From positions 1,426,001-1,490,000 of the forward strand of contig NC_088318.1 in NCBI RefSeq assembly GCF_910592395.1: a DNA stretch of 64,000 nt. The letters are read 5' to 3'. Positions within the stretch are counted from its first letter, which is position 1, and every line of letters starts with the position of its first letter. The notes beneath the pieces were generated by a model that was given only the letters and a program-made list of their open reading frames with translations, did no database searches and had not been told where the DNA came from. The stretch is from Lineus longissimus. Lineage: Eukaryota; Nemertea; Pilidiophora; Heteronemertea; Lineidae. Both the position numbers and the translations under genes were made by a program. Positions 6,001-37,661 of this stretch are shown one piece after another.

Positions 6001-9000
6001 ATAGTTCATTTCAAAAGGAAATGTGGGGATGTTGACTTCATCGCTGACCTTCTTCACAACCTTTCTACTTACAGTTGATGCTGGCAGAAAATGCCCGCGT
6101 TCGTGCCAAGATTCCTACAGCCTTTGACCCGTTGATGGTGCCGCATATCAGCAAAGTGGACGACGCCATTGAACCTGGAGTCACAATGATGATGTGGACA
6201 TCCATGAACGTTGACAAGTACATCGAAGGTAGGGCACAAATTTCCTTCAAATATTTGTGAGGAATCTGAAGGATGTATGTCTTGTACAGTCAATATTAGC
6301 CATTGGATCATTTCTCAGATATTAACGTGATAATGATTCCCCGTTTCTGTTCCAGGTGTTTATGCCGCCCTGGCTGACCTTGAACTCCTAATGGACCGCG
6401 CCAATGACTTGGTTGAGTTCCGTATCGATGCGGTCCTCATGGAGATGAGCATGGCTACGCTGTGCGAGCTGCCTGAGGATGAGCCTTGGTCGGTTGACAA
6501 GTTCCTCGAGAACACCCAGGTATGGTTGGTGTAATGTATCTGGTCACTTTGGTACCTGTTTGTAGTCTTCCGTGATAAATAGATGTCAAAGAAATCACTT
6601 GGTTGCGTTATATCTGACAGTTAGCACATTGAAGCTCTTGTTCTATGTTGGCTTTAAATCATCATTTTCTGAAAAAAACCAATCATAAGTAGGTTTTTAA
6701 AAATGGAAATAATGAAACGTCTTGTTTCTCCAGATGTTATGTATGCACGGTGCCCAGAACCTCCAGTCGAAGTCGATCAATGTTGAAGATGCCGCCAACG
6801 AACTCATCAACATGCTGTGTGTCCTCGAGGAGGAAGAGGTCGACCAGGATGACTTTGAGGATGAAGGTCACGATGATGAAGGTCAGTTCAAGGTCGTTTG
6901 GGGTCCGCTGCTCTTAGGTTGCGTGCAGTTGCCATTACTGTTGGATGCCAGTTTTGGTAATTGGTTGGGTGACTCCCACTTCAGCCTAGGAACAGGAGTC
7001 CATCCATGGAACATGGCAATCAAAGTTGATGTATTGCCTTTACTCGCAAGATGACGACAGCTCTCAAAGTGTTCAGTCTAAGTTGACTCAGTTGATTGAG
7101 ACGTTTCGTTCCTCACCCTCTTTCTACTTTATGTGCTGAGTTATCATGTGAATCTTACTCTACAGATGCTGAGAGAGGCAGCCGTAAGAGCCCGACCGGT
7201 TCCCACGGTTCTGGCAGCCCCAAGGCAGCCCAGAAGGCCAAGCCTCTTGACGGCGCAGCCAAGAAGAAGAAAGAAATCAAGGAGAGTATTGAGGAGGCAG
7301 CCAACGATCTATTGAATCATTTCAACCATCGCAACCTTGATGCCCTGCTCAAGGTCACACGCTACACCCTAGAGGGTCTGAGGAAGAGGATCACTTCAAG
7401 CTCCATGGTTCATTATATTGGTGAGTGGATGGTTGGCTACTTTTATAACAAAGTTTGCTCTGATTAATGTTAATTTAACTAGCACCATGTGTATACTACC
7501 CTGGTCACTCAGTGAGTGTAAGACTGCAAGCTCTAGGCTGCCCCCATCCAGGCTCTCGACCTCAACGTCATCACAAACGGGCGATGACTTGAGGTAATAA
7601 TGAGCTGCTACGACATAGCGACAAATAGTAGGCCTATAAAATATATCAGCGAGTCTGTCTCTGTGGTGATTGCATACTCTCATTTTCTCACCGTTCCAGA
7701 CAGTAGCAAAGGAGACGTCAAGAAGGATAGTCGTCCTTTCTTCCGAACGAATGCTACTCTGGCCATCCCCAACATCACCATGCAGCCAGCCCTTGATGAA
7801 GTCCAGCAGTCTGTCAACAAGGCAGCTCAGATGGTCATCGGAGTATCCAAGGGAGTCTCCCTCTGGAACAAAGATCGTAGACAGACCGAGAATCGCCCAG
7901 GATCCGCCTCGGATAACTTTGAGAGACGTAATAGCGTCACCAGCAACGTCCCATCGGAGAGCTCTCGCAGCGACTTGGTGACCCGCGGCCGGGACAAAGA
8001 GCAGACGCAGGCCTCCATGGTCACCAAGGATCAGAAGAACAACTACTTCAAGAACGTCTCTGAGAATAAAGAAGTATCCAAGTTGGCTTCACTGCTTTCA
8101 ACCTCCATCAACTCCACCAAGAAGGTAAAGTAATATTTCAACTTCGAAAATTCCAGTCTTAATGATATGAGGAACTTTCCCTCTTAGATAGATGTTGCCT
8201 GAATGCCTTTGTTCTTTGAATCTATAGCTGATCCATGTTTCCCTGTTTTCTCCAGGAGGTGACAACTGCTCTGGATAACTTTGCTCACTACAGCATCCTG
8301 TGGGAGAAGGACCGTGAGGCAGACCTCGTGGAGTTCATGAAGCAGGACCCGAAACTCTCCGAGTACGAGGCGATGATCCGCCACTATGAGGAGATGGAGA
8401 CTGAAATCATGGCGGAACCTGAGTGGTACGATGTGGGAGCAATCGCCCTCTATACCGGTAAGCTGGGTTTGGATTCTTCTTTGCATTGCGTCTGATGAGT
8501 TTTAGTGTTATGGCCTGGTTATTCTGTCTTTGGAAGTTCCACTTAAACATTGCTGGATATTTGAACTTATTGTCTATCCAATCAAACACTTAATCCATAT
8601 CAATAAACCTGTTGCAAATAATCTTAGTATCTTTCTTTTTCTAGAAAATCTGAAGTTTGGCTTGTTGACCGAGACGAAGGCCTGGCGTCTTCATTATGGC
8701 AAGGCTTGCAACACCAAGTACCGCTCAGAAATGGACAACACGGTCGAATTCGTCGATGAACTTGGCAAGAAACTCTCTCGTCCAATCAAGGATCTTGATG
8801 ACATCAGGATCGCCATGGCAGCACTCAAGGAGATCCGCAACAATGAGATCCGCATCGATATGGGCATCATGCCGATTGAGGAGTCGTACGCCATGTTGAA
8901 TAAGCACGACCTCCCCGTTCCTCGCGAGGAAGCTGAGCGCGTTGATACGATCAGGTACTCATGGGAGAAACTGCAGGTGCAGGCTGGTGAGGTGCAGACC

Positions 9001-11744
9001 TACCTTCTCAAGATCCAACCCAACTTCCGCACGGAACTCATCGACAATGTGGTGATCTTCCAGAAGGATTGCATCAACTTCTATTCTGATTACAACAATG
9101 TAAGTCAAAGTCCCAGAATCTTCAGGTCAAATTTGTTGGTTGCTCATCGAAGTTTTATTTCATGATTATGTTTGCAACAAGACGAAATAGTCAATGGCTG
9201 AAATGCTCCTTCACCAGCTTTTGCCACAAGGACTAATATTAAGATGTTGTAGAGTCAAATCAAGTGAAAGGTTTTACTTTCATTATCATGATCATATGTC
9301 CATTAGCCATGCCAGCCATTGTGGCAAACCTGGATTATACAGTATCATACTGTTCTGTTCTCAGAGAGGTGGATCTGATCCCTGGTCATTGCCCTGTCCA
9401 GTCCCGGATCTCAACCAGTCAGTGAGACATGAATCTAACATTCCTTGTTTATTTTCAGACTGGCCCAATGGTTGCTGGCGTTGCCCCACGCGAGGCATCA
9501 GATCGTCTTATCATCTACCAGAACAGATTCGACACTCTGTTCCGTGAGTACATCACCTACACTGGTGGTGAGGAACTCTTTGGTCTGCAAGTTACTGCCT
9601 ACCCGGAGCTGCTACAGATCAAGAAGGAATTGAACCTCCTGCAGAAGCTGTACGGCTTGTACAACGATGTCATTGATACCGTCAACAGTTACTATGACGT
9701 CTTGTGGGTCGATGTCGACATTGAGAAGATCAACGTTGAGCTGCAGGACTTCCAAAACAGATGTCGTAAACTCCCGCGCGCCCTGAAGGAGTGGTCTGCC
9801 TTTGAGGAACTGAAGAAGACCATTGATGACTTCAATGACATGGTCCCACTCCTGGAGTTGATGGCCAACAAGGCAATGAAGCCCCGTCATTGGCAGCGAA
9901 TGGCTGAGACCACCGGTCACATCTTTGATGTCGAGAATGAGAACTTCACATTGAGGAATATTCTCGAGGCACCGATCTTGGAAAACAAGGAAGATATTGA
10001 GGACATCTGTATCTCAGCCGTGAAAGAGAAGGATATTGAAGCCAAGCTCAAGGCAGTCATCGCTGAATGGGGAGGTCATAACTTCCAGTTTGGTAACTTC
10101 AAGAACCGTGGCGAGCTGTTACTGCGTGGTGACACGACTGGTGAGATCGTCTCGCTGATGGAGGATTCGCTCATGGTTCTCAGTTCCTTGCTTAGCAACA
10201 GATATAACGCACCATTCAAGAAGACGATTCAGCAATGGGTTCAGAACCTCTCTAACTCCTCCGAGATCATTGAGAACTGGATGACCGTGCAGAACTTATG
10301 GGTGTATCTCGAGGCTGTGTTTGTCGGCGGCGACATCGCCAAACAGCTACCCAAGGTGAGTGAAGTTCTGCGATGATAATATTATTCACTACCTGGAACT
10401 GTGGATGTGAAATCATGATTCCTGCTGGTAGATGCCAGTGGAGACCAAAGGATCCCACAAAAGGTGTTACTTGGTAGACGTCGGTTCCCTTGATTTCTCA
10501 GCTGAAGAGCAAATACTGTGAGGCTTTACTCACGATCTGTTTGTTCTCTGTCTTGCAGGAAGCCAAACGTTTCTCAAACATCGACAAGTCGTGGGTGAAG
10601 ATCATGACCCGCTCCCATGAGACGACCAACGTGGTCCAGTGCTGCGTTGGTGATGAGACCCTCAGCCAACTGTTACCTCATCTCCTGGAGCAGCTTGAGC
10701 TCTGTCAGAAGTCACTCACTGGGTAAGGATGCCAGGGATGTTCTCTGTGGTCGTTGTCCGCAGGGCTGATGCAGATCTGGTCTGACAGACTCGGCCATGC
10801 GACTATATGGTGCTTAATGTCAAGATGAAAGCTAATTTGGTTAAGATTTTGGATCATAATCTGTTTTATTACAGCACCTTTATCGTTTTAACAGAATGCA
10901 AGGAACCTGTTGAAACTTTTGCTATTTTGCTGCCGTCTGCTCAACGCTTCCTTCTATTTCAGCTACCTGGAGAAGAAGCGTCTGCTCTTCCCCCGATTCT
11001 TCTTCGTCTCCGATCCTGCTCTCCTTGAGATCCTTGGACAGGCCAGTGACCCCCACACCATCCAGGCTCATCTGCTGAGCGTCTTCGACAATACCAAGTC
11101 TGTCAAATTCCACGAGAAACAATACGAAGTGATCTTGTCCATCTTCTCATCGGAGGGAGAGACAATTGATGTAAGTTTGTTATCTAATTGAGTTGCTAAT
11201 TTTGTTGTCCAATTAAGTTACCAAGTTTCTTGTTGATTGAGTTGCCGGGTTGGTTATCTAATTGAGATGCCAAATTTGTTATCTTCTTGAGTTTATCTGC
11301 TCTGTGCTCATAATTATTCTGACGTCTGCTCATCCATGTTGTGTTTGTCTCCTTCAGCTCGAGAAACCAGTGAAAGCAGAAGGTAATGTTGAAGTCTGGT
11401 TGATGGCTCTCATGAAGATGGCGTTCAAGTCACTGCACGGCGTCATCCGAACTGCCGCCATGGCAATCCAGGACAGCAGTTTCAATCTGCTCGAGTTCTT
11501 GAGCATGTTCCCTGCTCAAGTCGGAGTCCTTGGAATTCAGATGATCTGGACGCGAGATGCTACAGACGCGCTCCAAAATGCCAAATACGATAAGAAGGTC
11601 ATGCAGCAGACGAATCAGGGCTTCTTAGATTTGCTGAACATCTTGATTGACCAGACAACCAAGGATTTAACGAAGGTTGAGAGGACCAAGTTTGAGACAC
11701 TCGTCACAATTCATGTGCATCAGAGGGATATCTTTGATGAGATG
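1..11744 (+). CDS. DNAH5: Dynein heavy chain tail and linker (exons 1-19)
   Basis: This part encodes the N-terminal tail (DHC_N1), which binds intermediate chains and the neighbouring heavy chain, followed by the linker (DHC_N2). It covers about 1832 residues. The first exon in the window (1-40) reads [14 protein letters not shown], matching a conserved early motif of DNAH5. Exons 4-8 hold well-conserved tail segments such as [14 protein letters not shown] and [11 protein letters not shown]. Exons 11-13 (6734-8124) are the least conserved: they contain an acidic E/D-rich run and a Lys/Ser-rich stretch, as expected of the variable tail of this subfamily. Exons 16-19 (9459-11744) carry linker motifs, for example [23 protein letters not shown] and the segment just before AAA1 ending in [11 protein letters not shown]. 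Confidence 0.93.
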
Positions 11745-14700
11745 GTAAGTGGAGAAGCAATTATAGGCTTTGTACAATTGAACTTGTATGCCTGAAGATG
11801 CGGAAGTTGGTCCGAGAGTGGTGATATGAAAGAGTAATCTGGAGTGGTTGTGGGTTGTTGTCAGACCTAGCTGATTGATATCAACGATAACTCTGATCTT
11901 ATGAATTTTCTTTCTTCCTCCAGTGTCGTATGCACATTAAGTCGCCCACCGACTTTGAGTGGCAGAAACAGTCCAGGTTCTACTTCGTCGAGGACACAGA
12001 CAAGTGCGTCATCTCCATAACTGATGTCGACTTCGAGTATCAGAATGAGTTTATTGGCTGTACTGAGCGTCTTTGCATCACCCCGCTCACTGATAGATGT
12101 TACATCACCTTGGCCCAGGCTCTGGGGATGTCGATGGGAGGTGCCCCCGCTGGGCCTGCCGGAACTGGTAAAACTGAGACCGTGAAAGACATGGGTCGCT
12201 GTCTTGGTAAATACGTTGTGGTCTTCAACTGTTCGGATCAAATGGATTTCCGTGGCCTTGGCCGAATCTACAAAGGTCTTGCCCAGTCCGGTTCCTGGGG
12301 TTGCTTTGATGAGTTCAATCGTATTGAACTGCCCGTGTTGTCGGTGGCTGCCCAGCAGATTGCGATCGTTCTACAGTGCAAGAAGGAACGCAAGAAACAG
12401 TTCATCTTCACCGACGGTGACAACGTTGCGATGAACCCAGAGTTCGGTATCTTCTTGACCATGAATCCTGGTTATGCTGGACGTCAAGAGTTGCCAGAGA
12501 ACTTGAAGATCAACTTCCGTACTGTGGCTATGATGGTGCCCGACCGTCAGATCATCATCCGTGTCAAGCTTGCTAGTGTTGGTTTCCAAGACAACATCGT
12601 GCTCGCCAGGAAGTTCTACACTCTCTACAAGCTGTGTGAGGAGCAGTTGACGAAACAAGTCCATTATGATTTTGGTTTGAGGAACATCCTCTCCGTCCTG
12701 CGTACACTCGGAACCAACAAGAGAATGAACCCAGACGACACGGAGCAGACGATCGTCATGAGAGTCCTGCGTGACATGAACTTGTCCAAACTGGTTGATC
12801 AGGACGAACCTCTCTTCTTGTCTTTGATCAATGACTTGTTCCCTGGGATCACCCTAGACAAGGCAGGATACCCAGAACTGGAGGCAGCCATCAATAAGAA
12901 CATTGACGATGTCAAACTTGTCAACCATCCACCATGGATTTTGAAGCTCATCCAGTTGTTTGAGACACAGCGGGTACGTCACGGTATGATGACCTTGGGA
13001 CCCTCAGGTGTCGGGAAGACATGCTGCATCCATATCCTGATGAAGGCGATGACTGACTGTGGTGAGCCCCACAGGGAGATGAGGATGAATCCAAAAGCCA
13101 TCACGGCCCCTCAGATGTTCGGTCGGCTAGATGTCGCCACCAACGACTGGACCGATGGTATCTTCTCCACACTTTGGAGGAGGACTCTCCGTGCCAAGAA
13201 GGGCGAACACGTATGGCTTGTCCTCGACGGGCCGGTCGACGCCATCTGGATTGAGAACTTGAACTCGGTCCTTGACGACAACAAGACCTTGACCTTGGCT
13301 AACGGTGATCGTATCCCCATGGCACCAAACTGCAAGATCATCTTCGAGCCTCACAACATCGATAACGCCTCCCCAGCTACCGTATCCAGGAACGGCATGG
13401 TCTACATGTCACCCTCGGGTTTGGAGTGGCAGCCATTGTTGAAAGGTTGGCTGAACCATCGCTCGGCGCAGGAAACAGACATCATCATGAGTCTGTTTGA
13501 GTCCATCTACACTGACCTGATGAACTACGCTACGCAAAATCTCCTCTTCAAGATGCAGGTCATGGATGCCTTTGTCATTGCTCAGGTGAGATATAGGGGA
13601 GCCCTGTGAAAACTTATATGCCGTCACACTAGTGATCACTAAAAAACTAATGAATTCTTTATAGGCTTTCATTGAATCAAATTGGTAATCAGGACATTTT
13701 GTGCCCTGGGCTACTATTCACCTACCAGTAGGCCTACTTATACTTTACATAAGGTTCTTTATGCTGCCTTCTGTCTGAGAATGATTCTGTTCTTAGCTTT
13801 TGTTCTCAAAGTTGAACAATCTGAAATCTCGATTAGTATTCTCAGCACAAACACATTGGTCTGAGGAAGGTTTAGAGTGATATATTAACTCAGTGTTGTT
13901 CTTTCTTGATTGCAGGCGACCCGTCTGCTGCAAGGCCTGATCCCCTCCAAGGAAGAGAAGGAGGGTGGCGTCACCAAGGACCACTTGGAGAAGCTGTTTG
14001 TCTTCACGTTGATGTGGAGTGTGGGGGCGTTCCTCGAGTGGGATGATCGCGTCAAGATGGAGGAATTCATGCGAAATCACGAGAGCAAACTGAACCTGCC
14101 CACGATTCCAGAGGGAGCAGAGGTCACCATGTTTGACTTCTTTGTTGATAATGATGGTGAGTATAAATTTTTGTTTGAAAATAAATCCTTTGAGCATTGC
14201 TTAGCTTTGTTAAATATAAACTCTAAAACGTAATCTAACTCAAATATTTTTGTTGAAAGGCAACTGGCAGCACTGGAGCACTAAAGTCCAGGATTACCAC
14301 TACCCGTCGGACTCTACGCCCGAATATGGCGGCATCTTGGTACCAAACGTCGACAATGTCAGGACCGAGTTTCTGATCGATACGATCTCTAAGCAAGGGA
14401 AGGCTGTGCTGTTGATTGGTGAGCAGGGTACGGCCAAGACGGTCATGTTGAATGGCTACATGGGCAAATACAATCCAGAGATGCACATCGGCAGCAGCTT
14501 CAACTTTTCATCGGCGACGACTCCGCTGATGTTCCAGGTAAGTTGAGAGAGAGATGCTTGAACTTGAATACCAAAACATGTCCCGACCTTAGTATCAGTG
14601 TTGATGGTGAACAGGGTGCCTATATAGGTATTGACAGGAACAGGAGAGGTGCTAGCAAGGGAACATAAGGGGAGGCTTGAGTGATTCCTTGAGACTGACA

Positions 14701-17700
14701 GGTGAACCGTGACTACGGTACTAGAATCTCATGTAAACCCAGTCTGGGGGTTGTAGACACAGTTTACAATCCATGAATCTATGTAAACTTATCCAGTAGT
14801 TGCTGATTTTTCAAGGAAGGTCATCAAGCTAATCTGATTGAATTCCTTTCTCTAGCGTACCATCGAGAGTTACGTTGACAAGCGTATGGGCAGCACGTAT
14901 GGTCCACCTGCTGGGAAGAAGATGACTGTCTTTATTGATGACATCAACATGCCCGTGATCAACGAGTGGGGAGATCAGGTCGCCAATGAGATTGTGCGAC
15001 AGGTGATGGAAATGAAGGGCTTCTACAACTTGGAGAAACCTGGCGACTTCACCAGCCTCGTCGACATGCAGTTCTTGGCTGCCATGATCCAGCCAGGTGG
15101 CGGTCGTAATGACATCCCAGAGCGTCTCAAACGTCAGTTCACCATCTTCAACTGTACGCTACCATCTAATCCATCCATTGATAAGATCTTTACTGTCATT
15201 GGTACTGGCCATTTCTGCGAGGAGCGTGGTTTCACAGAGGGTGTTCGCGAAATGGTAGCGAGGCTTGTCCCCATCACACGTCGACTCTGGCAGCTGACAA
15301 AGGTTTGTAATTGCCCTCTATACTATTCTTCTGAAGTCGAAGGCATTGTGGATATCACTGGCATTTGACATTGGTGCCGATCATGGCTCAGTTATATTTT
15401 GATGAAGAGATTCGAAGCTGGTTGAAAATCCCCCCATGTGGGATTCCAATTCTAAGTAAATCTATGACATTGGAGCTCACATTTGATTACGAATTTTTGA
15501 AATTTCTACTTATTTGTCTGCAGGTGAAGATGTTGCCGACGCCTGCCAAGTTCCACTACATCTTCAACTTGCGTGATTTGTCGCGTATCTGGCAGGGAAT
15601 GATCAACACGATCTCCACGGTTGTCGCAGATACCAAGATCCTGCTAGGCCTCTGGAAACACGAGTGTTGTCGTGTCATTGCTGATAGGTACGCATCGGAA
15701 AAAGCTATGACTATTATAGTAAGAGGAACCCTTGAAGTAAAGGAACTGTTTACAGATTCTGTTTTTCCTGACAGATCGTAATTCAAAATGTCATTGTAAA
15801 ACTCTGATTTTGCCTTAATTGGTGATACTATTGTAATTTTGTCAAATCCTTTCAGTCTGTTCTGAATTTCCATTTTGCTGTGCACCATAATGTCATCATG
15901 AACATGATTCTGTTGCAGCTTTCTATGGTTGGTCTCGGTGTATTGATAATCTTTTAAAGAGTTTGAATATGTCTTCTTCATGCGTTAGTGTTGGAAGGGT
16001 GAGGTTTATGATAGCACAGCAGTGAATAGAGACGTAATTCACTTGCATGAAACACTTCATACTCAATGTATTGTTGTTATTCACTGAATGCATGAAATCT
16101 AGTTGAAAAGGGGCTGTTCAAATATATTACACTTGGATTTGTTGTTTTCAAATTCTAAAAGTAGTGCATGACTAATTGTTTACGAAGCATGCATAAGGAT
16201 ATAAATGAACAAAAAAAGGGATAGATGTTGGCCCCTAAGATCTGACACTCAATCAAAGGCCTCTTCTTAGGCCAGGTTTTCGTCGAGTTCATGTTATCAC
16301 TTCAAGAACAAACAAGTTTTTTCGAAAGAGCAGGCTAGTGTCATGAAAATCGATTTCACCAATTTCAATGTACTACTTCAGGTTTGTGGCTATTGAAGAT
16401 GTCCACTGGTTCACAAAAACAATGTCTCGCGTAATCATGGAAGAGTTTGGAGAGACCGAGCAAACTTATATTGAACATGACACTTTCTATGTTGATTTCT
16501 TGAGGTAACGTCACGTGTGGAGTAGCGCCGATGCAAGGTTTACCAGTAGCGCTTTGGGCTTTTAATTGATTTGTCTTATTAATCTTATTGTGTTTTAGCT
16601 TTAATTCAGTTCTAGAGCTTTATGTTGATAACCACAGCTAGGTTAGCGCAGGTTTGGTGATGCTACAGCCGGTGTGTTCCCTCGTAGCAGACGTCACAAT
16701 GTTACATCTGGTGTGTCTTAACTCGCTTCTGCTGCTTATTACAACAGGTTCACACATATAGAGGATTATAACTGGTTGCTTAAAACAGCTAATCGGGTAA
16801 TATCTGATGAACTTGGAGAGGAGTACTTGCCTGCTTTGGAAGCGACCCGATATTTTGTAGACTTTTTGAGGTAACGTCGTGTGTCCGCATCTCGCTTCAT
16901 GCGATTTCACTGGGTGGCTGCTGTGTATCCCTCACATTTTTGTTATTTTTTATTAAATAACCTCATTTTATTTTCATTAACCCTCTGAGTTTTGTTTCAG
17001 TTGGGTTTACGTCTTTTGATGGGTCTAACGTTGTTCAGTGTCTTAACTATACAAATCAGTTGTGGTATTAGAGGAATGGGTAACTTCCTTTTCTACTACA
17101 GCTGATGTATTGTTCTTTGTTTACTAATCTCATTTCTGGCGCTTAGCAACACATTTAGGAGGAGTGTCTCACTTCACTGATACCTGGCTCATAAGTCTGG
17201 TAGGTCAACATCGGGATGACAGTTATTGAAAAGTGGCCCAATTCTCAAAAGTTTCTCATAATATTCCGTTAAAAAGGAATGTTTACAAACAAGAAAGTTC
17301 CAAATGTTCAGCTATAACACTGATATGACACAGCAACTTTGACAACATAGGCTAACTGTTCACTGATGTTGACTTACAAGGACTTGTGTTGACCTTGTAG
17401 CACACCTCAAGGTCACTTGGATTAACCACTTCATTTCCATTGCAGTGTTACTCACATTGAATGACTCACATTGGCTCACTGGGCAAATATAAGTAGTTGG
17501 GCATTGCATAACTAACCACGCATATCTGTAATTCATCTTTGCACAGGTTTACTACGGTTAATGATTTAAATTGGTTTGAAAAAACCATCTCTCGTGTAAT
17601 CGGCGATGTGCTTGGAGACGATTATACGGAATTGTTACATACCGTGTACTACTGTGACTTCCTAAGGTAGAAGACTGGCAGTTTACATTTTTCCACCATT

Positions 17701-20700
17701 TTTTATCGAGAACATACTATTTGCATCAGATGACCGTAAATGAAAATGAAATCATTCTCGCGCACGTATATTCGGCAACATCCAGCTCCTACCGGCTGCG
17801 CCATTGATTCAGAGGTGTATTGGTCGCTAGATTTCCTAGACTTGTTCACGGTGTCCACTATGTTTAGGTAATAATATTGAATTAAAAGCATTCAAATGAC
17901 ATAAACTAATGAAATTTCAATCAGCCAACGGATGCAAACTGTATGTATCTCAGCTTTTGTATGTAGTTGTCCATAATAGCATGAATCTGGAGGTAGTTTC
18001 TTGAAAGCCCGCAATTGCACGTCATAACTTGTTCAACATTTGCACTTAACGCTAAAATTTTTTTACCAAAATATATAAGTCATATCCTTAAATCAGAATC
18101 TTTATCTTGAATTCCTTTGACAATCTTGTCTTCCTAATTCTGGTCTCTGAACTTAAACCCTGAAAACCTTATCTTATTTCTATGTCAGTCCTGTGAGTTA
18201 GACTTAGTCAGTCCTGACGACCCTCTACAGTCCAGCATGTTGCATACTCAACCTATCATTCAGGTGCCCAAACTGGACTAAAACTTCTCAAACCTACCCT
18301 GCCAAACCTGTTTTGCCTTCTCTCTATTTCCCTGTGTTGAGAAATCATCCCACCCCTAGCCCCCCAACCCATTTGAACCAATAAGTTTTTACATATCTTT
18401 GTATGTTATTATGATATTGTGAAGGTGTTTTGCCTGTTCAAATGTCCAGAGACTTAATGTGGTTTGATTCCCATTTTGTCACATTCAAGGTGACACACTT
18501 ATACTTGTACCTACCTGTATTCGAAGCTCTTCTCTCAACTGCTATTGAATCAGACAAAACGTCATGGAATTTTTAAATGTGGTTGATTAAAATGATATCA
18601 TACTCATAGTACATTGTTCTGCTAATATTCAAGTAATTTCGAAGTAAATATTCATTTGACGATCCATCTATAGTCAGTCATATAGATTGGAATCCTGTGT
18701 TCTTACGTGGTTTAATGAGATTAACTTTGGTCCTCAAGTAAGGAAATATTTGTATGATGCATCTACAGAAGTCTCTTCTTATGACCTTGGCTCTAACCTC
18801 TCGTTTTCTTCTTAATAGGGATGCCCCAGAAGCCACTGGTGAGGAGCCTGAGGATACTGACTTTGATATGCCAAAGATTTATGAACCTGTAAGTCATTCA
18901 TATTACACCTTTAAAGGCCTATCGGTACTCTGTTCAAAGATTTGGAAATTGAACTTGAATTTGAAAATATCCAATTGTTTGTTGTCTGTCTTGAAAAGTG
19001 GATTCATTACCTCAGATTGTGTAAATATCATCAGTGTGGCTACAATACCGACCATCCTTTTCAGATCGAGTCCTTCAAATCGCTGGAAGAGCGTCTGTTA
19101 TTCTTCATGGCTCAATACAACGAGGCGATCCGTGGCGCCAACATGGACTTGGTGTTCTTCGAAGATGCCATGATCCATCTGGTGAAGATATCGCGTATCA
19201 TCCGTACGCCCCGCGGCCACGCCCTGCTCGTTGGTGTGGGAGGCTCCGGTAAACAGTCACTAACGAAACTCGCATCATTCATTGCTGGTTACAAGAACTT
19301 CCAGATTACATTGACAAGGTTTGTATTTAGAGTTCTTTGGTCACACGTTAGATTTGCTGACTAGTGTTCATTGGTCTAAGTTATGCCCAACAAGCTGCGG
19401 GTCATTTTGTCATTTTGCCGTATGTTGTCTTACAGATCGTACAACGTGTCCAATCTCCTTGAGGACCTCAAGTTCCTGTACCGCACGGCCGGTCAGCAAG
19501 GGAAAGGTATCTCATTCATCTTCACTGACCAAGAGATCAAGGAGGAAGGCTTCCTCGAGTATCTCAACAACGTCCTGGCGTCCGGTGTCGTTTCCAATCT
19601 CTTCGCTCGTGATGAGATGGATGAGATCTGTATGGAGTTGATCCCCGTCATGAAGAAGGAGTTCCCACGGCGACCACCAAGCAATGAGAATCTGTATGAG
19701 TACTTCATGTCGAGGACACGCCAGAATCTTCATGTCGTGCTGTGTTTCTCGCCTGTAAGTACCGCCAAAATCAGCCAAGATGATCTCTCTTTCGCTGTTA
19801 ACAACCATTATTCCAACTTGGTGCATATGGAACATACAGATTGAGTTGGTGGTCTTAAAGCTGTTGAGAGTGCATGTTTTGAAAATGTTGATCATTTCGA
19901 GGCATATGTCAATATCGATTTTTACTATTTATTCAATTCATTTCAGGTCGGGGAGAAATTCCGCAACCGAGCTTTGAAATTCCCTGGTTTGATTTCTGGT
20001 TGTACCATGGATTGGTTCCAGCGTTGGCCCAAAGACGCTTTGATCGCCGTGGCCGATCATTTCTTGGATAAATTTGAGATTGTGTGCAGTCCTGAGACAA
20101 AGCGGCAGGTGATCCAGGCCATGGGGACGATGCACGACGGCGTCGCCGAGAGTTGTATTGATTACTTCCAGAGGTAAGCAATTAGGTCGCCATTAGAGAC
20201 ATGACCTGGAACTTTTGAACGCCTTTCCCAACCACCCTTCTAGGCCCAGATTGTTACACATAGAGGGCTGTGAAAAGGCTCACTGGAGTTGGCCCTTGAG
20301 AAGGGAACACCAGTTTTTTACCAGACAATGAGATGTCAAGGAAAGCATAAGTGGAGGAACACTTTGGATAAAAACAATTCAGAGTGGAAACTTTTAGGTC
20401 TCTGCCAACATTTTTGTGTTTGCTGTTTCAGGTATCGGCGTTCCACTCATGTGACGCCCAAATCTTACCTGTCATTCATCACGAGTTATAAGAACGTCTA
20501 CGCTGATAAGAGGGCAGAGATCGGTGAGCTGGCTAACAGAATGAACACAGGTCTCGACAAGTTGATTGAGGCGTCTGAGTCTGTAGCGGAACTTAGCATC
20601 GAATTAGCCGTGAAAGAAAAAGATCTTGCAGTAGCCAATACAAAAGCTGAAGCTGTGTTGAAGGAGGTGACGACCAAGGCCCAGGCTGCTGAGAAAGTCA

Positions 20701-23700
20701 AGAGCCAAGTGCAAAAGGTCAAGGACAAAGCGCAGGGTATTGTTGACGCAATTGAGGCGGATAAGAAGATCGCTGAGGCCAAGTTGGAGGCTGCTCGACC
20801 TGCTCTGGAGGAGGCTGAGAATGCGCTGAATACGATCAAACCTGCTGATATCTCGACCGTCAGGAAGCTTGGTAAACCGCCACATCTGATCATGAGGATC
20901 ATGGACTGCGTACTGCTGTTGTTCCAACAGAGACTTGATCCCGTCGCAAAGGATCCGGAGAGAGAATGCATGAAGCCATCGTGGGGAGCTTCACTGAGGG
21001 TACGTACGCATCAATGACAAATTCCACCCATTTCCCAACGAAGCTGAGGCATGCCAGTAGAAACAACGATCTTTGAGTTACAGGGTTCGTAATGTTCGTT
21101 GTAAAGGTACTGGTAAAACATGAATATAACTTATGTCTCTCTCCCATCAGATGATGGCTGGAACTGGTTTCCTCCAGTTGCTCATGAACTTCCCCAAGGA
21201 TACCATCAATGATGAGACTGTTGAGCTGCTCGAGCCTTACCTCCAAATGGAAGACTACAATCTGGAGACGGCAAAGAAAGTGTGCGGTAATGTTGCCGGT
21301 CTCTGCTCGTGGACGAAAGCTATGGCGTCCTTCTTCGCAATTAACAAGGAGGTTCTGCCACTCAAGGTTAGTGTAGAACTACCCATTGGGAGCCCCATCC
21401 TCCTGACGTCTGCTGTGCGATATAACTGCCAATCTTAAGGCCCTCACTTCTGACTTGAGTTCATTTGGAGCCCCACCCTCCTCTATCAACTTAGCCGCTG
21501 ATGTCTGCTTATCTTTGGGTGTGTGTGTGGCACATACATGTATCACAGCATCGTCATATTCAAAGCTTTGTTCCATGGCAACTGGAGCCAACAACTTCTC
21601 TTCCTTGATTGATGCTGATGGCCTTGGTGATAACTAATCTCGTGTTCCATTTTCTTCCAGGCCAACTTGGTTGTGCAAGAAGCTCGTCTGCAGGCTGCCA
21701 TGAAGGATCTGGCGGCCGCCCAGGCTCAGCTCGATGAGAAACAGGCTGAACTCGACATCGTACAGGCACAGTATGACGCAGCCATGGCGGAGAAACAGCG
21801 CTTGATGGATGACGCCGAAACCTGCCGTCGTAAGATGGGGGCAGCATCAGCGCTCATTAGTGGTTTGGCGGGAGAGAAGGAACGTTGGACCGAGCAAAGC
21901 AAGGAGTTCAAAGAGCAAATCGGACGACTTGTTGGCGATGTTTTGGCGTGCACTGCTTTCCTCTCCTACTCTGGGCCGTTCAATCAGGACTTCCGTGGCT
22001 CCCTCGGCAAGAATTGGCAGAAAGAGATGAAGACGAGAAAGATTCCGTTCTCCCAGAATCTCAGCGTGATAAACATGCTCGTTGATCCAACAACGGTAAA
22101 TACAATTATTGGAAAACATTAGCAGTTGAATGTGTCACAGCCTGGATGAGTAGCAATTCACCCGTACAGGTATTTATCTCATGTGCTGTTTTGATGGGTT
22201 CTAAAGATATTAGCATGAGAGCTGACCATCAACTGGGGCATCATTAGCTCTACAAAACAGAGGATTTCCTGCTTTTCTGAAAAAACGAAATTGAGGTTTG
22301 GGATTTTCGTTGTTATTTTGAAACTCATTTCTTGCAGGTGGCTGAGTGGAATCTCCAAGGTCTCCCCAATGATGAGCTGTCAGTCCAGAACGGTCTGATC
22401 GTCACCAAGTCGTCACGTTTCCCATTACTCATTGATCCTCAAGGCCAGGGCAAGATCTGGATTAAGAATAGAGAGGGTGACAAAGAACTTCAGGTACATC
22501 AAATGTTTAACCCTTTAGGGACTGGGGCAATTTCCTGAAGCGGGAGCATCAAACAAATGATACTATCAGAAAGTACCAGCTGAGAGCTTTCCAATGTATG
22601 GTCATGTCAATGGGTTTGGGGCTGGAGGGGGTCATTTTTCGTCTTCGGCAGTCGAGCATATTTGTCTTCTTCGACTTTCATTTAATCTCTTTCAATTATT
22701 CAATAGACTCAAACTGCGGTGGTAAGATCATTTGGCTGTTGGTTTGATATTGTACCCTGTGAATCAGAATATCTGTATCGTTATCGTATTTTTGGGAGAC
22801 TTTGTATCTGGTTTGTCTATTGTCCATATGTTCATGCTCACTTTCATCGTGCTGTGATTAAGTGGTTCTGAGCGTTGGTGCTTATTTGTCTCACTTGCCA
22901 ACAAAATGAAACAAAACTTTTTTATCCCCCGTTCATACCAACTTCTCCAGACTAGACTATAACCTGTACCAATCATCTTTCAGATAACTTCCCTGAACCA
23001 CAAGTACTTCAGACAACATCTTGAAGATGCCTTGTCTCTGGGGCGCCCCCTGTTGATAGAGGATGTAGGTGAGGAGCTCGATCCTGCCCTTGACAACGTC
23101 TTGGAGAAGAACTTCATCAAATCGGGCAGAACCTTAAAGGTACGGTGTCATCTTTGAAATTTGGAATGTGAATACTTTTAGCGCTGACTTCTTCCTGAAA
23201 GCAATTGAAGTATAAAGTTTAACAGTTAAACTATCCAGGGCAGAAAGATGCCAATGTATGTTGTGACAAATTGGTCATTATATGAGGTGAAAGCGAAAGT
23301 TAATCCTTGTATCAATTGTCAGAAATATCTCATTTGCATCAATACTTTTCAATTCCAGGTGAAAGTTGGAGATAAAGAAGTGGACGTGATGACCGGCTTT
23401 ACGCTCTTCATCACTACCAAGCTGCCAAATCCCTCGTACACGCCAGAAGTGTCGGCAAAGACGTCCATTATCGACTTCACCGTCACCATGAAGGGTCTTG
23501 AGGATCAGCTGCTTGGCCGGGTCATCCTCACAGAGAAGGCAGTAAGTATTTGTGACCTTTAGGAACCCTATCCAAGTGAGACTCGAATCCCTGACCATAG
23601 ACATTGAGGAAATATATTTTCATATAAAAACTGTCAAACTAAATGTGTAAATTCAGTTTATAAACTTTATGGCTGTATTTTCAGGAACTTGAGAGTGAGC

Positions 23701-26700
23701 GTGTGAAGCTGATGGAAGATGTGACTTCAAACAAGAGAAAGATGAAGGAACTCGAGGATAACCTGCTCTATCGTCTCACCAGTGTTCAGGTAAGCGGCTC
23801 TCTGCCTTGGATGTCTGTCCACTCAGAACGTCTGCCTGGTTAAGATGTCCGTCTGTTCATGAGCCATCAGTTCTAGATGTCCATCTTCTCAGTTTGTCCG
23901 TCTGCTCAGAACATCTGTCTGCTCTGTACGTCCACCTGCTTGAAATGTCCGTCTGTTCATGAAGTCATCAGTTCTAGATGTCCGTCTGCTCAGGATGTCT
24001 ATCCGCTCAGAACATCTTTGTCAAGTCATTGGTGAAAGTTGCAGTTGTATCTGTATTGTTTATTCTGTATGCCGTCTGCTTTCCAGGGTTCACTTGTTGA
24101 TGATGAGGATTTGATCAACGTGCTCAACGTGACCAAACTGACTGCCCAGGACGTCAGCCAGAAACTGCAGATCGCTGCCGAGACTGAGATCAAGATCAAC
24201 GCGGCACGAGAGGAGTTCCGTCCCGTCGCCACCCGTGGCAGCATCCTGTACTTCTTGATCACTGACATGAGCTTGGTCAATGTCATGTACCAGACGTCAC
24301 TGAAACAGTTCTTGGGACTCTTTGATCTGTCGATGGCTAGGTAAGAAATGGTGATGGCCATCTTCTGGGCTAAATCACTTTTCTTTGCTGATCTTTTTAA
24401 CAATCGGTTGTAAAAGCCAATTTCTCAAACATACTGTGTAGTGTTCTGTGTTTGCTCTCTGTTTCCTCGTAAGGTTGTTCCTGTAGGTCAAGGTCATTCT
24501 GCAATGTCTTGCCTCAGGGTTTCATACTGTGGACAGTATTATGAAAAGTGATGATTACAGGAATGAATCGAGACAAATCCTTGCTCTGACTTTGAATTCT
24601 GTCCTTGATGTTGTTTCTATCACTTGACTCCAGGTCGACCAAGTCGCCCATCACCCAGAAGAGGATCACCAACATCATCGAGTACATGACATATGAGGTT
24701 TACAAGTACGCCGTGCGAGGCCTCTACGAGGAGGACAAGATGACCTTCACCCTGCTTCTGGCGTTGAAGATCGACATGCAGGGCAACAAGGTCAGGCACG
24801 AGGAGTTCTCTACTCTCATCAAAGGTGGCGCTGCTTTGGATCTGAACGTCGTGACGCCGAAACCGTGCAAGTGGATAACAGACCTGACCTGGTTGAATCT
24901 GGTTGAGCTGAGCAATCTGCATCAGTTCTCTGGCATCCTCGACCAGGTGGCGAGGAACGAGAAACAATGGCGGCAATGGTTTGACAAGGAGGCTCCCGAG
25001 GAGGAGGTGATTCCTGACGGCTACAACAACTCACTTGATGTCTTCAGACGTCTGCTCCTTGTCAGGTCGTGGTGTCCTGACAGGACACTCTCACAGTCCA
25101 GGAAATACATCGCCGATTCTCTTGGTGAGAAGTACGCGGAGGGTGTCATCCTTGACCTTGAGAAGATGTGGGAGGAGTCAGACTGTAGGACGCCACTGGT
25201 CGGCTTACTCTCAATGGGTTCTGATCCAACAACGAATATTGAAAACCTCGCCAAGAAACATAAACTAGGTAAGTGCGAGAAGTTTTAGAAGTGATTTTTT
25301 GTTTTGCAAAGTTGCAGTTATTGCCAATATGGGTAAGAATCGCCTTGCATCTCAAAGAGTGGTTGGTATAAGAAATTCAAAAAGTGTTTTGAAGAATATC
25401 GTTGTATCATCTACAGCACTTACTGTTTTTGTTTCAGAGTGCAAGGCCATCTCAATGGGTCAAGGTCAGGACGTACACGCCCGTCGTCTGCTTGCTCACA
25501 TGTTTACCAGTGGAGGCTGGACACTGCTGCAGAACTGTCACTTGTCTTTGGCTTTCGTCAACGAGGTGATGGACCTGGTCTTGGAGACGGAGACGATACA
25601 TGAGGCTTTCAGGTTGTGGGTGACCACGGAGGTTCACCCTAAGTTCCCCATCAGTTTCCTTCAGGTGAGCCATCAACCTTGGATGCAGTAGTTCTCCTTT
25701 GAGAGTACACATCACTGAATACTTTGAGGCTTGTCAGTTGACAAGTTTAGGTAGGCCGCAGAAATTGGCCCAAAGCATTGAGACGATACGAACTATGAAA
25801 GCTGAAGGACTAAAGTGAGGTTACAACTAGGTGTTTACTGCTCGTGATGTACAGCTTGAGGGTGCTAACTAAGTCCTATGTCTTTACATATTGATCAACT
25901 GTAAATGGGTCTAAGCAAACCAGTCGGAACATCTAAAATGGTTTCTTTTGATTGCAGATGTCAATCAAGTTCTCCAATGAGCCACCTCAGGGAATCAAGG
26001 CCGGTCTGAAGCGGTCCTACGCTGGGTTCACACAAGATTTCCTCGAGATCTCCAACATGCCCCAGTGGAAGCCGATGTTGTTTGGCGTGGCCTTCCTCCA
26101 CACGACGGTACAAGAACGGAGGAAGTTTGGCCCACTTGGTTGGAACATCCCGTATGAGTTCAACACGTCTGATTTCAACGCCAGCGTCCAGTTTGTCCAG
26201 AATCATCTTGATGATATGGATATTAAGAAGGTACGTTTTGAAGAAGAAACAAAAAAACAACTTTCTATGTTCAGCTGTATGTCCTAATCTTGGCACAAGT
26301 CACGACTCTAAATTACTCTCCTTGACTTAGTCACACCCTGATGGAAACGCCCTGAATGCTGTGCTATGATTAACCCAAATGTTATAACTAATGTCATGTT
26401 TCTGTTTCAGGGAGTCAACTGGAACTGTGTACGCTACATGTTTGGTGAGATCCAATATGGCGGTCGTGTAACAGACGACTACGACAAGCGTCTGCTGAAT
26501 ACCTTCTGTAAAGTTTGGTTCGGAGAGAATATGTTCAATCAGAATTTCAACTTCTACAAGGGATATGTGATACCTAAGTGTAACAAGCTGAATGAGTACA
26601 TGGAGTACATCAACAGTTTACCGAATACTGACACACCCGAGGCATTTGGTCTTCATCCTAATGCTGATATCACGTAAGTACACATTTCTCTCTTCATCCA

Positions 26701-28199
26701 ATTCATGAAGTCTAAGACAACAGTTTGTCACGTCTTTCATTCAAGAAGGCACTGGTCAGTTGTGATAGCTAGACCATAGTCCAGAGTCTGAAAATCTCTC
26801 TTGAGATAGAGGTAAGGGGTTAGGAGTTTGTCACTCCTGTTAATACCATGGTTATATCTGAATGATTGGTCCTCGTATTCCAGGTACCAGAGTAAGACTG
26901 CCAAAACCATCCTGGACGAGATCCTGAACATCCAACCGAAAGACAGCAGTGGTTCCGGCGGTGAGACACGTGAAACTGTCGTTTATCGTCTCTGCGATGA
27001 CATGTTGGACAAACTCCCCAACGACTACATCCCATACGAGGTGAAAGCTCGCCTCCAGAAGTACGGACCTCTGCAGCCGATGAACATCTTCCTGAGGCAG
27101 GAGGTCGACCGTATGCAGAAGGTCATCACGGAGGTCAGGACAACCTTGACCGACCTCAAGCTGGCTATTGACGGTACCATCATCATGAATGAGAATCTGA
27201 GAGATGCCTTGGATTGCATGTTCGATGCTCGCATTCCTCGTATTTGGGCCAAGGTAGGTTTGATTTGATACTTGTACTATCATTTGTTTTACCAAATATG
27301 GAAATTATTTGGAGGTATTGGTTTCAACCTGGTCTTAGTTCTCTGAACTCATTGGCAATCCCAGTCCTTGTTTTAAGTGGCTTATCATCTTGTTCTCTTC
27401 CAGATCTCCTGGCAGTCCAGCACACTTGGTTTCTGGTTCACGGAGCTGATTGAACGTAACAACCAGTTCCACACGTGGGTGTTTGATAACCGACCAAACA
27501 CGTTCTGGATGACTGGTTTCTTCAACCCGCAGGGATTCCTCACGGCCATGAGACAGGTACGAACACAATGTTTGAAGAAACTAACCAGTTATGGTGATGT
27601 CAGAATCAGGTCTAAAAAAAACGGCACACCATACTTCCTCAAACCTTCGATTCCAGAGAAATGTGCTTGTCAGTCACTGGGTTGTGACAACCTCTTGTAT
27701 CATAACTTCCATCAAGCGAGATTTTTACACCTTCACTTAAAAAATCGTCGCTCAAATTAGGAATGAAACATGCTGTGAGACAATTTCTCTAAACGTTTTG
27801 ATTTCATTCCAGGAGGTGACCAGAGCCCACAAAGGTTGGGCCTTGGATGGAGTGGTCCTTCACAATGAGGTGACGCGCTACCTGAAAGATGACATCACAC
27901 AGCCACCAGCAGAGGGCGTCTACGTCTACGGCCTCTTCCTCGAGGGCGCTGGCTGGGATCGCCGTGGTTGCAAACTCGTCGAGCCAAAACCGAAAGTTTT
28001 GTTCGAGCCGCTGCCAGTTATTCTGATCGATGCAGTGAATAACATCAACGTTCACGATGCCAGAACGTATTGTTGTCCGATTTATAAGAAGCCTCAGAGG
28101 ACGGATCTGACGTATATCGCTCCTGTTGAACTCAAGACAACGCAGCCTGCGGACTTCTGGATCCTGCGTGGTGTCGCCCTGCTCTGTGACATCAAATAG
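1..28199 (+). CDS. DNAH5: Axonemal outer-arm dynein heavy chain, DNAH5/DNAH8 type (5' partial)
   Basis: This is the motor heavy chain of the ciliary outer dynein arm. Translated exons match the DNAH5/DNAH8 subfamily from the tail to the C-terminus. Exons: 1-40, 2262-2425, 2778-2985, 3455-3795, 3951-4172, 4449-4895, 5055-5283, 5505-5890, 6075-6228, 6356-6519, 6734-6881, 7166-7420, 7700-8124, 8256-8457, 8645-9099, 9459-10355, 10559-10722, 10963-11170, 11358-11744, 11924-13585, 13916-14156, 14260-14537, 14856-15302, 15524-15687, one of three alternatives (16382-16504, 16748-16870, 17547-17666), 18819-18888, 19065-19318, 19436-19754, 19947-20173, 20432-20999, 21151-21366, 21661-22095, 22338-22493, 22984-23139, 23359-23541, 23685-23789, 24087-24340, 24634-25268, 25438-25664, 25958-26230, 26411-26673, 26884-27253, 27404-27556, 27813-28199. 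All introns are GT-AG and all phases agree. About 4553 residues are present; roughly 80 N-terminal residues lie upstream. DNAH5 and DNAH8 cannot be separated by eye. Confidence 0.95.
41..2261 (+). other. Dynein intron 1 in the window
   Basis: This 2.2-kb intron begins gtaagt at 41 and ends ttcag at 2261. It holds a G homopolymer near 79-91 and one tRNA-derived SINE (reported separately). The short open stretches in it have no coding character that I can recognise. Confidence 0.8.
1855..2115 (+). mobile_element. tRNA-derived SINE with a Deu-like central part
   Basis: The head resembles a tRNA. An A-box-like stretch sits around 1858-1880, and a good B box (GGTTCAACTCC) lies at 1916-1926. It is followed by a body with TAAAGCACTTTGACC near 2020 and AAAAAGTGCTATGAAGTG near 2054, which resembles the paired CACTTTG / GTGCTAT blocks of the Deu domain of deuterostome SINEs. 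The element lies in a dynein intron. Boundaries and family are uncertain without a repeat library. Confidence 0.5.
11171..11295 (+). repeat. Degenerate intronic tandem repeat, about 25-28 bp unit
   Basis: About four imperfect units of the form TTATCTAATTGAGTTGC plus a T-rich tail follow each other in the intron between the exons ending 11170 and starting 11358. Units vary by several substitutions. No coding role is visible. Confidence 0.6.
11924..13585 (+). CDS. DNAH5: Dynein AAA1 and AAA2 modules in one 1662-bp exon
   Basis: This single exon encodes 554 residues containing the main ATPase module AAA1 and regulatory AAA2. The AAA1 Walker A motif [10 protein letters not shown] lies at 12152-12181. 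Its Walker B region CFDEFNR follows near 12304-12324, and a sensor-type motif with MNPGYAGR near 12462-12485. The AAA2 P-loop GPSGVGKT lies at 12998-13021, followed by the Walker B-like [12 protein letters not shown] segment near 13215-13250. Both P-loops keep the Lys and Ser/Thr needed for nucleotide binding. It is by far the longest exon of the gene; its neighbours are mostly 100-450 bp. Confidence 0.95.
13916..15687 (+). CDS. DNAH5: Dynein AAA3 module (exons 21-24)
   Basis: Exons 13916-14156, 14260-14537, 14856-15302 and 15524-15687 encode AAA3, a regulatory nucleotide-binding module. Its P-loop GEQGTAKT is at 14418-14441 and Walker B-type FIDDINMPV near 14930-14957. The module ends in the helical segment containing [18 protein letters not shown] and [13 protein letters not shown]. 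The last exon ends in phase 2 (AG|G, Arg), which is exactly the phase needed by each of the three alternative exons downstream. Confidence 0.94.
16382..16504 (+). CDS. DNAH5: Alternative dynein exon 25, variant a
   Basis: This 123-nt exon encodes 40 full codons plus a split Arg at each end, beginning [13 protein letters not shown] and ending FYVDFLR. The acceptor (ttcag, 16377-16381) and donor (gtaacg from 16505) are good. Entry and exit are both phase 2. It joins IADR of exon 24 to DAPEA of the exon at 18819 without disturbing the frame. Vertebrate DNAH5 has one segment here with the same W at the ninth position and the same DFLR end, so this copy supplies that segment. It is one of three homologous exons in tandem and is probably used mutually exclusively. 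Confidence 0.85.
16748..16870 (+). CDS. DNAH5: Alternative dynein exon 25, variant b
   Basis: This is the second copy of the variable exon, also 123 nt and phase 2 at both ends. It begins [13 protein letters not shown] and ends YFVDFLR. The acceptor is acaacag (16741-16747); the donor gtaacg starts at 16871. Compared with variant a it keeps the ED..W core, the RVI segment and VDFLR, but differs at most surface-type positions. The intron separating it from variant a is 243 nt. Its donor flank (gaggtaacgtc) is the same as that of variant a, as expected of a tandem exon duplication. Confidence 0.85.
17547..17666 (+). CDS. DNAH5: Alternative dynein exon 25, variant c
   Basis: This is the third copy, 120 nt, so one codon shorter than a and b, again phase 2 at both ends. 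It begins [13 protein letters not shown] and ends YYCDFLR. The acceptor is ttgcacag (17539-17546). The donor gtagaag at 17667 is weaker than the gtaacg donors of a and b. It is 676 nt after variant b and 1152 nt before the next constitutive exon. Reading frame and the W, SRVI and DFLR positions are intact, so it looks functional rather than decayed. Confidence 0.82.
18819..20431 (+). CDS. DNAH5: Dynein AAA4 module (exons 26-29)
   Basis: Exons 18819-18888, 19065-19318, 19436-19754 and 19947-20173 encode AAA4. The P-loop GVGGSGKQS lies at about 19233-19259, and the Walker B-type FIFTDQEI near 19515-19540. The small first exon (70 nt, [12 protein letters not shown]...) is acidic and connects the alternative exon to AAA4. 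The module ends with [20 protein letters not shown], conserved in axonemal heavy chains. The range ends at the intron before the stalk exon. Confidence 0.93.
20432..22095 (+). CDS. DNAH5: Dynein stalk, microtubule-binding domain and start of AAA5
   Basis: Exon 20432-20999 encodes the first stalk coiled coil, rich in Ala, Glu and Lys with heptad spacing ([17 protein letters not shown]), followed by the start of the microtubule-binding domain ([17 protein letters not shown]). Exon 21151-21366 continues that domain ([16 protein letters not shown]). Exon 21661-22095 returns down the second coiled coil ([18 protein letters not shown]) and enters AAA5 ([13 protein letters not shown]). Both helices are intact with no frame break. 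Confidence 0.94.
22338..28199 (+). CDS. DNAH5: Dynein AAA5-AAA6 and C-terminal domain (exons 33-44)
   Basis: Twelve exons encode AAA5, AAA6 and the axonemal-type C-terminal domain. Recognisable blocks include [69 protein letters not shown]-like [29 protein letters not shown] and [16 protein letters not shown]. The protein ends [14 protein letters not shown] followed by TAG at 28197-28199, the expected C-terminus of this subfamily. Confidence 0.95.
23795..24020 (+). repeat. Degenerate intronic repeat of GTCCGTCTGCTCAGAAC-like units
   Basis: In the intron between 23789 and 24087, motifs such as ATGTCCGTCTGTTCATGA, CAGTTCTAGATGTCC and CTCAGAACATCTGTCTG recur irregularly about ten times. A higher-order unit of roughly 120 bp (TTCATGA..CATCAGTTCTAGATGTCC) occurs twice. 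Confidence 0.6.
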
Positions 28200-37624: not shown

Positions 37625-37661
37625 AGCTCCGGACTTGGTCACAATACATAATACTGGTCAC
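37625..37661 (-). other. 5' UTR part of the MEP-1-like coding exon with splice acceptor
   Basis: Read on the minus strand, CTCCCCTTTATCTCTGCAG ends at 37662, a strong polypyrimidine tract and acceptor. The exon therefore begins at 37661 with 37 nt of leader before the ATG. A non-coding first exon must lie upstream, probably near the CACGTG-rich region at 38.4-38.7 kb. Confidence 0.6.

What the first reader, a model, noticed from the sequence alone, without database searches (positions are those of the whole stretch)
15687..18819. Three tandem, phase-matched alternative exons at the AAA3/AAA4 junction of an outer-arm dynein heavy chain
Seen: 16382-16504, 16748-16870 and 17547-17666 encode three homologous 39-40-residue segments. 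They share a Trp near position 9, an SRVI/NRVI core and a terminal DFLR, all start and end in phase 2, and each is flanked by its own AG and GT. Exon 24 ends and the exon at 18819 begins in the phase they require. Known: vertebrate DNAH5/DNAH8 have one such segment. Inference: mutually exclusive splicing yields three motors that differ where AAA3 meets AAA4, a region tied to regulation of the ATPase ring. I know of no description of this in an axonemal dynein. It could tune cilia in different cell types (for example sperm and larval ciliary band).
Basis: partly seen in the sequence, partly recalled or inferred. Interest (0 to 1): 0.92.

Follow-up and report, generated by a model that had tools for sequence, protein, structure and literature searches.

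The report
Three swappable exons in cilia motor
A ribbon worm's gene for a motor protein that drives cilia carries three alternative versions of one small exon, so a single gene can probably make three variants of the motor ring, and molluscs seem to do something similar.

Summary
The window holds most of the DNAH5-type outer-arm dynein heavy-chain gene of the nemertean Lineus longissimus (exact 45-exon model). The 3.1-kb gap between the exons ending at 15687 and starting at 18819 contains three homologous, open, phase 2-2 exons. An HMM of other proteins' segments finds exactly these three in 64 kb (E 1e-18 to 6e-16; next 2.9). The database protein uses copy 1. None of the three donors has G at +5, against 39 of 43 other donors of the gene. 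Two mollusc gene models carry two such segments in series with the same border. Related molluscs, such as two oysters 96% identical overall, differ here (54%). So the cluster may predate the nemertean-mollusc split, but the tree support is moderate and a local triplication is not rejected. Of 116 proteins read, 114 carry one segment and 2 carry two. One-at-a-time choice is therefore likely, but frame and intron length do not enforce it and no RNA was available. The segment ends the AAA3 lid. Tissue roles are untested. The closest known case is a Schistosoma cytoplasmic dynein.

The parts
1..28199 (+). DNAH5-type outer-arm dynein heavy-chain gene (residues 115-4687 of P0001; 45 exons, first one cut by the window edge; stop codon 28197-28199)
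   Evidence: joined exons equal P0001 residue for residue from residue 115
15524..15687 (+). constitutive exon upstream of the cluster (25th in window), ends in phase 2 (AD-AG)
16382..16504 (+). alternative copy 1, [40 protein letters not shown](R); the one used in database isoform X2
16490..16518 (+). 29-nt repeat spanning the copy 1 donor (GAG|GTAACGTC...), 83% identical to 16856-16884
16748..16870 (+). alternative copy 2, [40 protein letters not shown](R)
16856..16884 (+). second copy of the 29-nt donor-spanning repeat
17547..17666 (+). alternative copy 3, [39 protein letters not shown](R); groups with the distal (second) mollusc segments at moderate support
18819..18888 (+). constitutive exon downstream of the cluster ([23 protein letters not shown])

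Best explanation
The three exons are tandem-duplicated alternatives of a single obligatory exon of an outer-arm (gamma/DNAH5-type) dynein heavy chain. One copy is normally chosen per transcript, giving up to three motors that differ only in about 40 residues: the last two helices of the AAA3 small (lid) subdomain and the strand leading into AAA4. Shown: three intact coding copies with matching phases; use of copy 1 in an annotated protein; uniformly weak donors; like segments in series in two mollusc gene models; one segment per protein in 114 of 116 relatives read. Inferred: that choice is regulated by trans-factors acting on weak donors, and that the variants tune how the AAA3/AAA4 face meets linkers or regulators in different ciliated cells (for example sperm and epithelia).
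For: Structure of the locus. HMM from other proteins finds exactly three copies. pN below pS in all three pairs: 0.356-0.385 against 0.535-0.826. A scan of the gene's other internal exons up to 700 nt against their neighbouring introns found no second cluster; the best other candidate scored 0. All three donors lack +5G, against 39 of 43 other donors that have it, and outrank only 1, 1 and 2 of 43 (Fisher 0.0023). Biomphalaria P0010 and Mytilus coruscus P0013 contain two segments in series joined exactly at R|F. Crassostrea and Ostrea are 96% identical overall but 54% in the segment. Single segments are 41-43 residues in 114 of 116 proteins, and no clean skip was found in the 120 listed. AlphaFold2: helices 86-104 and 106-113 and strand 117-120 of the fragment, block pLDDT 67-90 over residues 81-120. 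Pfam AAA_lid_1 and DYN_lid reach into the start of the segment.
Against: No transcripts were available. Frame and intron sizes (243 and 676 nt between copies) do not enforce exclusivity. Two relatives have two segments in series. Copy 3 has a very weak acceptor (1 of 43 constitutive acceptors scores lower) and is one residue shorter than any of the 114 single segments. No supported RNA docking site: 6 of 100 shuffled sets were as good. The AU test does not reject a lineage-specific triplication (p 0.23). Copy 3's highest percent identity is to a Macrostomum segment outside the distal group, although its best score is to a Crassostrea segment inside it.
Confidence: 0.8

Rival explanations
1. 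Only copy 1 is used as a rule. Copies 2 and 3 are duplicated exons that are silent or decaying.
For: Only copy 1 is seen in the one Lineus protein shown to me (P0001). Copy 3 has weak splice sites at both ends.
Against: Copies 2 and 3 are fully open, score E 2.8e-18 and 6.3e-16 against segments of other proteins, and show protein-level constraint. Copy 2 has exactly the donor sequence of the used copy 1. Two molluscs keep a second segment.
Confidence: 0.1
2. The copies are independently included cassettes, so that proteins with 0, 1, 2 or 3 segments are made.
For: Every combination tested (none, 1+2, 1+3, 2+3, 1+2+3) is in frame and open. Two mollusc proteins have two in series (P0010, P0013).
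Against: 114 of 116 proteins read have one segment and no clean skip was found among the 120 listed. The aligned Chlamydomonas gamma-chain segment has the same length without gaps, as expected of an obligatory structural element. The two doubles may be gene models that joined alternatives; I could not check their transcript support.
Confidence: 0.07
3. The cluster is a lineage-specific nemertean triplication unrelated to the molluscan pairs (about origin; compatible with the best explanation of how it works).
For: The AU test does not reject one clade of the three copies (p 0.23). Only 41 columns, most forks unresolved.
Against: Each copy is closer to some foreign segment (61, 59 and 58% best identity) than to its sisters (45-53%). 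Copy 3 falls with both mollusc 'second' segments in a 16-row group (86/88). The best-of-37 comparison is biased upward.
Confidence: 0.25

Closest known systems
Mutually exclusive exon pair in the cytoplasmic dynein heavy chain of Schistosoma mansoni (SmDHC1; WebScipio paper PMC3228551, section 9 read)
   Same: Dynein heavy chain; [quoted passage not shown] the authors judge them mutually exclusive from an alignment of more than 2000 heavy chains
   Different: Cytoplasmic, not axonemal; one extra exon rather than two; position within the motor not given in the text I read
Arthropod muscle myosin heavy chain exon clusters (described in PMC3228551, section 9)
   Same: One motor gene makes variants tuned for muscle types by swapping homologous exons
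   Different: Actin motor; several clusters per gene; unrelated protein
Vertebrate DNAH5 and DNAH8
   Same: Two versions of this heavy-chain type that differ in this segment among other places (8j07_n0 is labelled DNAH5; 9fqr_I3, from bovine sperm, carries another name in the PDB table and I take it for DNAH8). DNAH8 in sperm and DNAH5 in airway cilia is recalled.
   Different: Made by gene duplication, not exon choice (recalled); one segment per protein in the sequences seen

Membership tests
DNAH5-type (gamma) axonemal outer-arm dynein heavy chain | closest sequence match to DNAH5 heavy chains over the motor | tested here: met
   P0001 'dynein axonemal heavy chain 5-like isoform X2 [Lineus longissimus]' 100% over the 566 residues searched (98% covered); human DNAH5 best in PDB, 2.8e-86
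DNAH5-type (gamma) axonemal outer-arm dynein heavy chain | built into the outer arm of cilia | not testable with these tools
   no protein localisation data
Tandem-duplicated mutually exclusive exon cluster | adjacent homologous exons of near-equal length and identical phase with own AG/GT | tested here: met
Tandem-duplicated mutually exclusive exon cluster | each copy gives an intact protein | tested here: met
   4573, 4573 and 4572 residues from the window's exons, no stop
Tandem-duplicated mutually exclusive exon cluster | exactly one copy per transcript | tested here: inconclusive
   114 of 116 relatives read carry one, 2 carry two; no clean skip in the 120 listed; no transcripts of this animal
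Tandem-duplicated mutually exclusive exon cluster | device that forbids joint inclusion: frame shift | tested here: not met
   all tested combinations in frame; not required of every known cluster (recalled)
Tandem-duplicated mutually exclusive exon cluster | device that forbids joint inclusion: too-short intron between copies | tested here: not met
   243 and 676 nt; smallest other intron of the gene 103 nt
Tandem-duplicated mutually exclusive exon cluster | device that forbids joint inclusion: docking/selector RNA pairing | tested here: inconclusive
   best downstream docking site equalled by 6 of 100 shuffled sets; upstream flanks only roughly tested; comparative introns not available

The most novel reading that the evidence does not exclude
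An ancient exon-choice switch, inherited from an ancestor of nemerteans and molluscs, lets one gamma-type heavy-chain gene make different outer-arm motors for different cilia. It would do by splicing what vertebrates do with two genes, DNAH5 (airway) and DNAH8 (sperm). The swapped face of AAA3/AAA4 would be the tuning point for linker docking or regulator binding.
Probability: 0.35. Interest if true: 0.82.

Novelty: new member of a known kind. Interest (0 to 1): 0.6.

Why it matters
Cilia with very different loads and waveforms (sperm tails, larval bands, gills) share a small set of dynein heavy chains. A natural swap of 40 residues at the AAA3 lid, with the rest of a 4,700-residue motor unchanged, would be a clean experiment on what that face does. 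In published structures it lies where linkers of the same or neighbouring motors can dock, and in cytoplasmic dynein where Lis1 binds. If the switch is shared across phyla, RNA-seq from oysters, mussels and snails could test tissue specificity directly.

Tried and rejected
RNA docking/selector model: a candidate site at 16638-16687 pairs with all three downstream flanks, and 0 of 546 single shuffled windows reached it, but when whole sets of 91 windows were shuffled 6 of 100 sets did as well; dropped. For upstream flanks 2 of 546 shuffled windows reached the best; not tested by whole sets. Lineage-specific triplication: not favoured, not rejected. A fourth copy: none in the window. Other exon clusters in the gene: none found (exons over 700 nt were skipped, only candidates within 15% + 12 nt of the exon's length were allowed, and only 12 exon/intron pairs had any open candidate). 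Two protein searches with copy 3 alone and copy 2 alone gave no hits, because only 2 and 3 candidates shared enough words; they say nothing about absence. The recall-based idea that a 2016 evolution paper on dyneins (10.1093/molbev/msw213) describes this could not be checked: not held. The same holds for PMC12206504. PMC9741552 (human tandem duplicated exons) does not mention dynein.

Full report
What the window is. The gene is the DNAH5-type axonemal dynein heavy chain of Lineus longissimus, the bootlace worm. A 566-residue stretch matches P0001, 'dynein axonemal heavy chain 5-like isoform X2 [Lineus longissimus]', at 100% identity over the aligned 98%; the next best is 90% in a snail (2637 proteins matched, the best 120 listed, only those 120 examined). 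Exact mapping gives 45 exons in the window, from residue 115 to the stop at 28197-28199, and the joined exons reproduce that part of P0001 letter for letter.

Splice signals. A scoring matrix was made from the gene's 43 other donors and 43 other acceptors. The donors of copies 1 and 2 (both GAG|GTAACG) outrank only 1 of 43, and that of copy 3 (AAG|GTAGAA) only 2 of 43. None has G at +5, where 39 of 43 others do; one-sided Fisher 0.0023, with the caution that the copies share ancestry. The acceptors of copies 1, 2 and 3 outrank 18, 3 and 1 of 43. Copies 1 and 2 share a 29-nt, 83% identical stretch running from the exon end into the intron (16490-16518, 16856-16884), while their exon synonymous sites are nearly saturated (pS 0.74). 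A shared regulatory sequence at the donor is a reasonable inference, as is partial gene conversion.

Exclusivity. Lengths are 123, 123 and 120, so every combination tested, including none and all three, stays in frame and open. The introns between copies are 243 and 676 nt, above the gene's minimum of 103, so crowding does not forbid joint splicing. A docking-site search was not significant (6 of 100 shuffled sets as low). What argues for one copy at a time is the protein. Of the 116 of 120 listed relatives in which my pattern read the segment, 114 have one of 41-43 residues and 2 have two in series. The pattern itself cannot see a skip, so I looked for one separately: in 0 of 120 is the upstream border joined to the downstream motif within 20 residues. 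Of the four unread, P0009 ends at the border and P0024 is broken inside the segment, and P0056 and P0058 hold most of one segment but lack the exon before it. The aligned stretch of the Chlamydomonas gamma chain has the same length without gaps.

Relatives. The two doubles, Biomphalaria glabrata P0010 and Mytilus coruscus P0013, are joined exactly at R|F, the border seen here, in the order 'VDFLR' kind then '(T/G)(S/D)FMR' kind. I read them as gene models that put two alternative exons in one protein, though joint splicing is not excluded. P0009 reads VIADR-YVCCFR and stops, which looks like read-through into the intron at the same border. Comparing close relatives that show different kinds, Crassostrea and Ostrea are 96% identical overall, 93% and 99% in the 150 residues on either side, and 54% in the segment. 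In 10 such pairs the mean segment identity is 0.44 (my arithmetic), and in 8 of 10 no sampled window of the same size within 900 residues is as low. In 10 same-kind pairs the mean is 0.64, and in 3 of 10 no window is as low either. I chose the pairs and assigned the kinds by eye, so this test is partly circular, and the segment also evolves fast by itself. In a tree of 40 segments (41 columns) copy 3 joins a 16-row group holding both mollusc second segments (support 86/88, below the tool's star). Copies 1 and 2 lie outside it, unresolved among rows that include the mollusc first segments. By score copy 3's nearest is Crassostrea, inside the group; by percent identity it is Macrostomum P0023, outside it. 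AU tests do not reject a clade of all three copies (p 0.23), of copies 2+3 (0.217) or of 1+2 (0.33). My reading is an old proximal/distal pair with a further proximal copy here. It is probable, not proven.

Where it sits. Pfam places the start of the segment in the AAA+ lid (AAA_lid_1, residues 3-79 of the 203-residue query, the segment starting at 56). AlphaFold2 on a 10-sequence alignment gives the segment (fragment residues 83-123) two helices (86-104, 106-113) and a strand (117-120), with block pLDDT 67, 89, 90 and 70. The AAA4 part of the fragment is poorly modelled, and the mean is 60. The top 46 Foldseek matches by title are dynein or axoneme entries, best a chain of the bovine sperm axoneme at 61% identity, with rmsd 12.2 for that row. 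So the exon is the end of the AAA3 small subdomain and its junction to AAA4; the exact helix assignment is inference.

How it may work (inference). [quoted passage not shown] PMC6249098). Swapping the lid's outer helices could therefore alter linker docking, motor-to-motor coupling or regulator binding without touching catalytic motifs. No result here tests this.

Known or new. PMC3228551 (section 9 and passages read) reports a mutually exclusive exon in the cytoplasmic heavy chain of Schistosoma and mentions an alignment of more than 2000 heavy chains, so its authors may know of others. Searches for axonemal cases listed none in the open-licence library (listings only, plus passages of PMC11270918 and of PMC6103457; one search was very broad and returned mostly unrelated papers). 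Subscription papers are not covered. Gene databases may already hold the isoforms as predictions: 'isoform X2' suggests siblings, and P0001 stands for 11 sequences I could not list.

Noticed in passing
29469-31519: 89-bp minisatellite, 17.5 copies (94% matches) followed directly at 31039 by 5.4 copies of the unit in the opposite orientation (core of the unit 18 times forward and 0 reverse before 31039, 0 forward and 5 reverse after it), about 1.3 kb downstream of the dynein stop.
   Followed up: partly
16490-16518 and 16856-16884: 29-nt repeat across the donors of copies 1 and 2, conserved into the intron although exon synonymous sites are nearly saturated; possible shared splicing element.
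   Followed up: partly
33647-37657 (-): Open reading frame of 1337 codons on the minus strand, by eye rich in Ser/Glu/Asp, no Pfam match.
   Followed up: partly
56058-56660 (-): Stretch matching TSNAXIP1_N (E 5.2e-28), a translin-associated factor X-interacting protein.
   Followed up: partly
46597-46968 (+): Aminotransferase class I/II match (E 7.8e-13); neighbouring ORFs look like alanine aminotransferase (name recalled).
   Followed up: partly
P0002/P0026 and P0023/P0086: Babylonia and Macrostomum each list two or more divergent DNAH5-like proteins, so some invertebrates may also have duplicated the gene.
   Followed up: no
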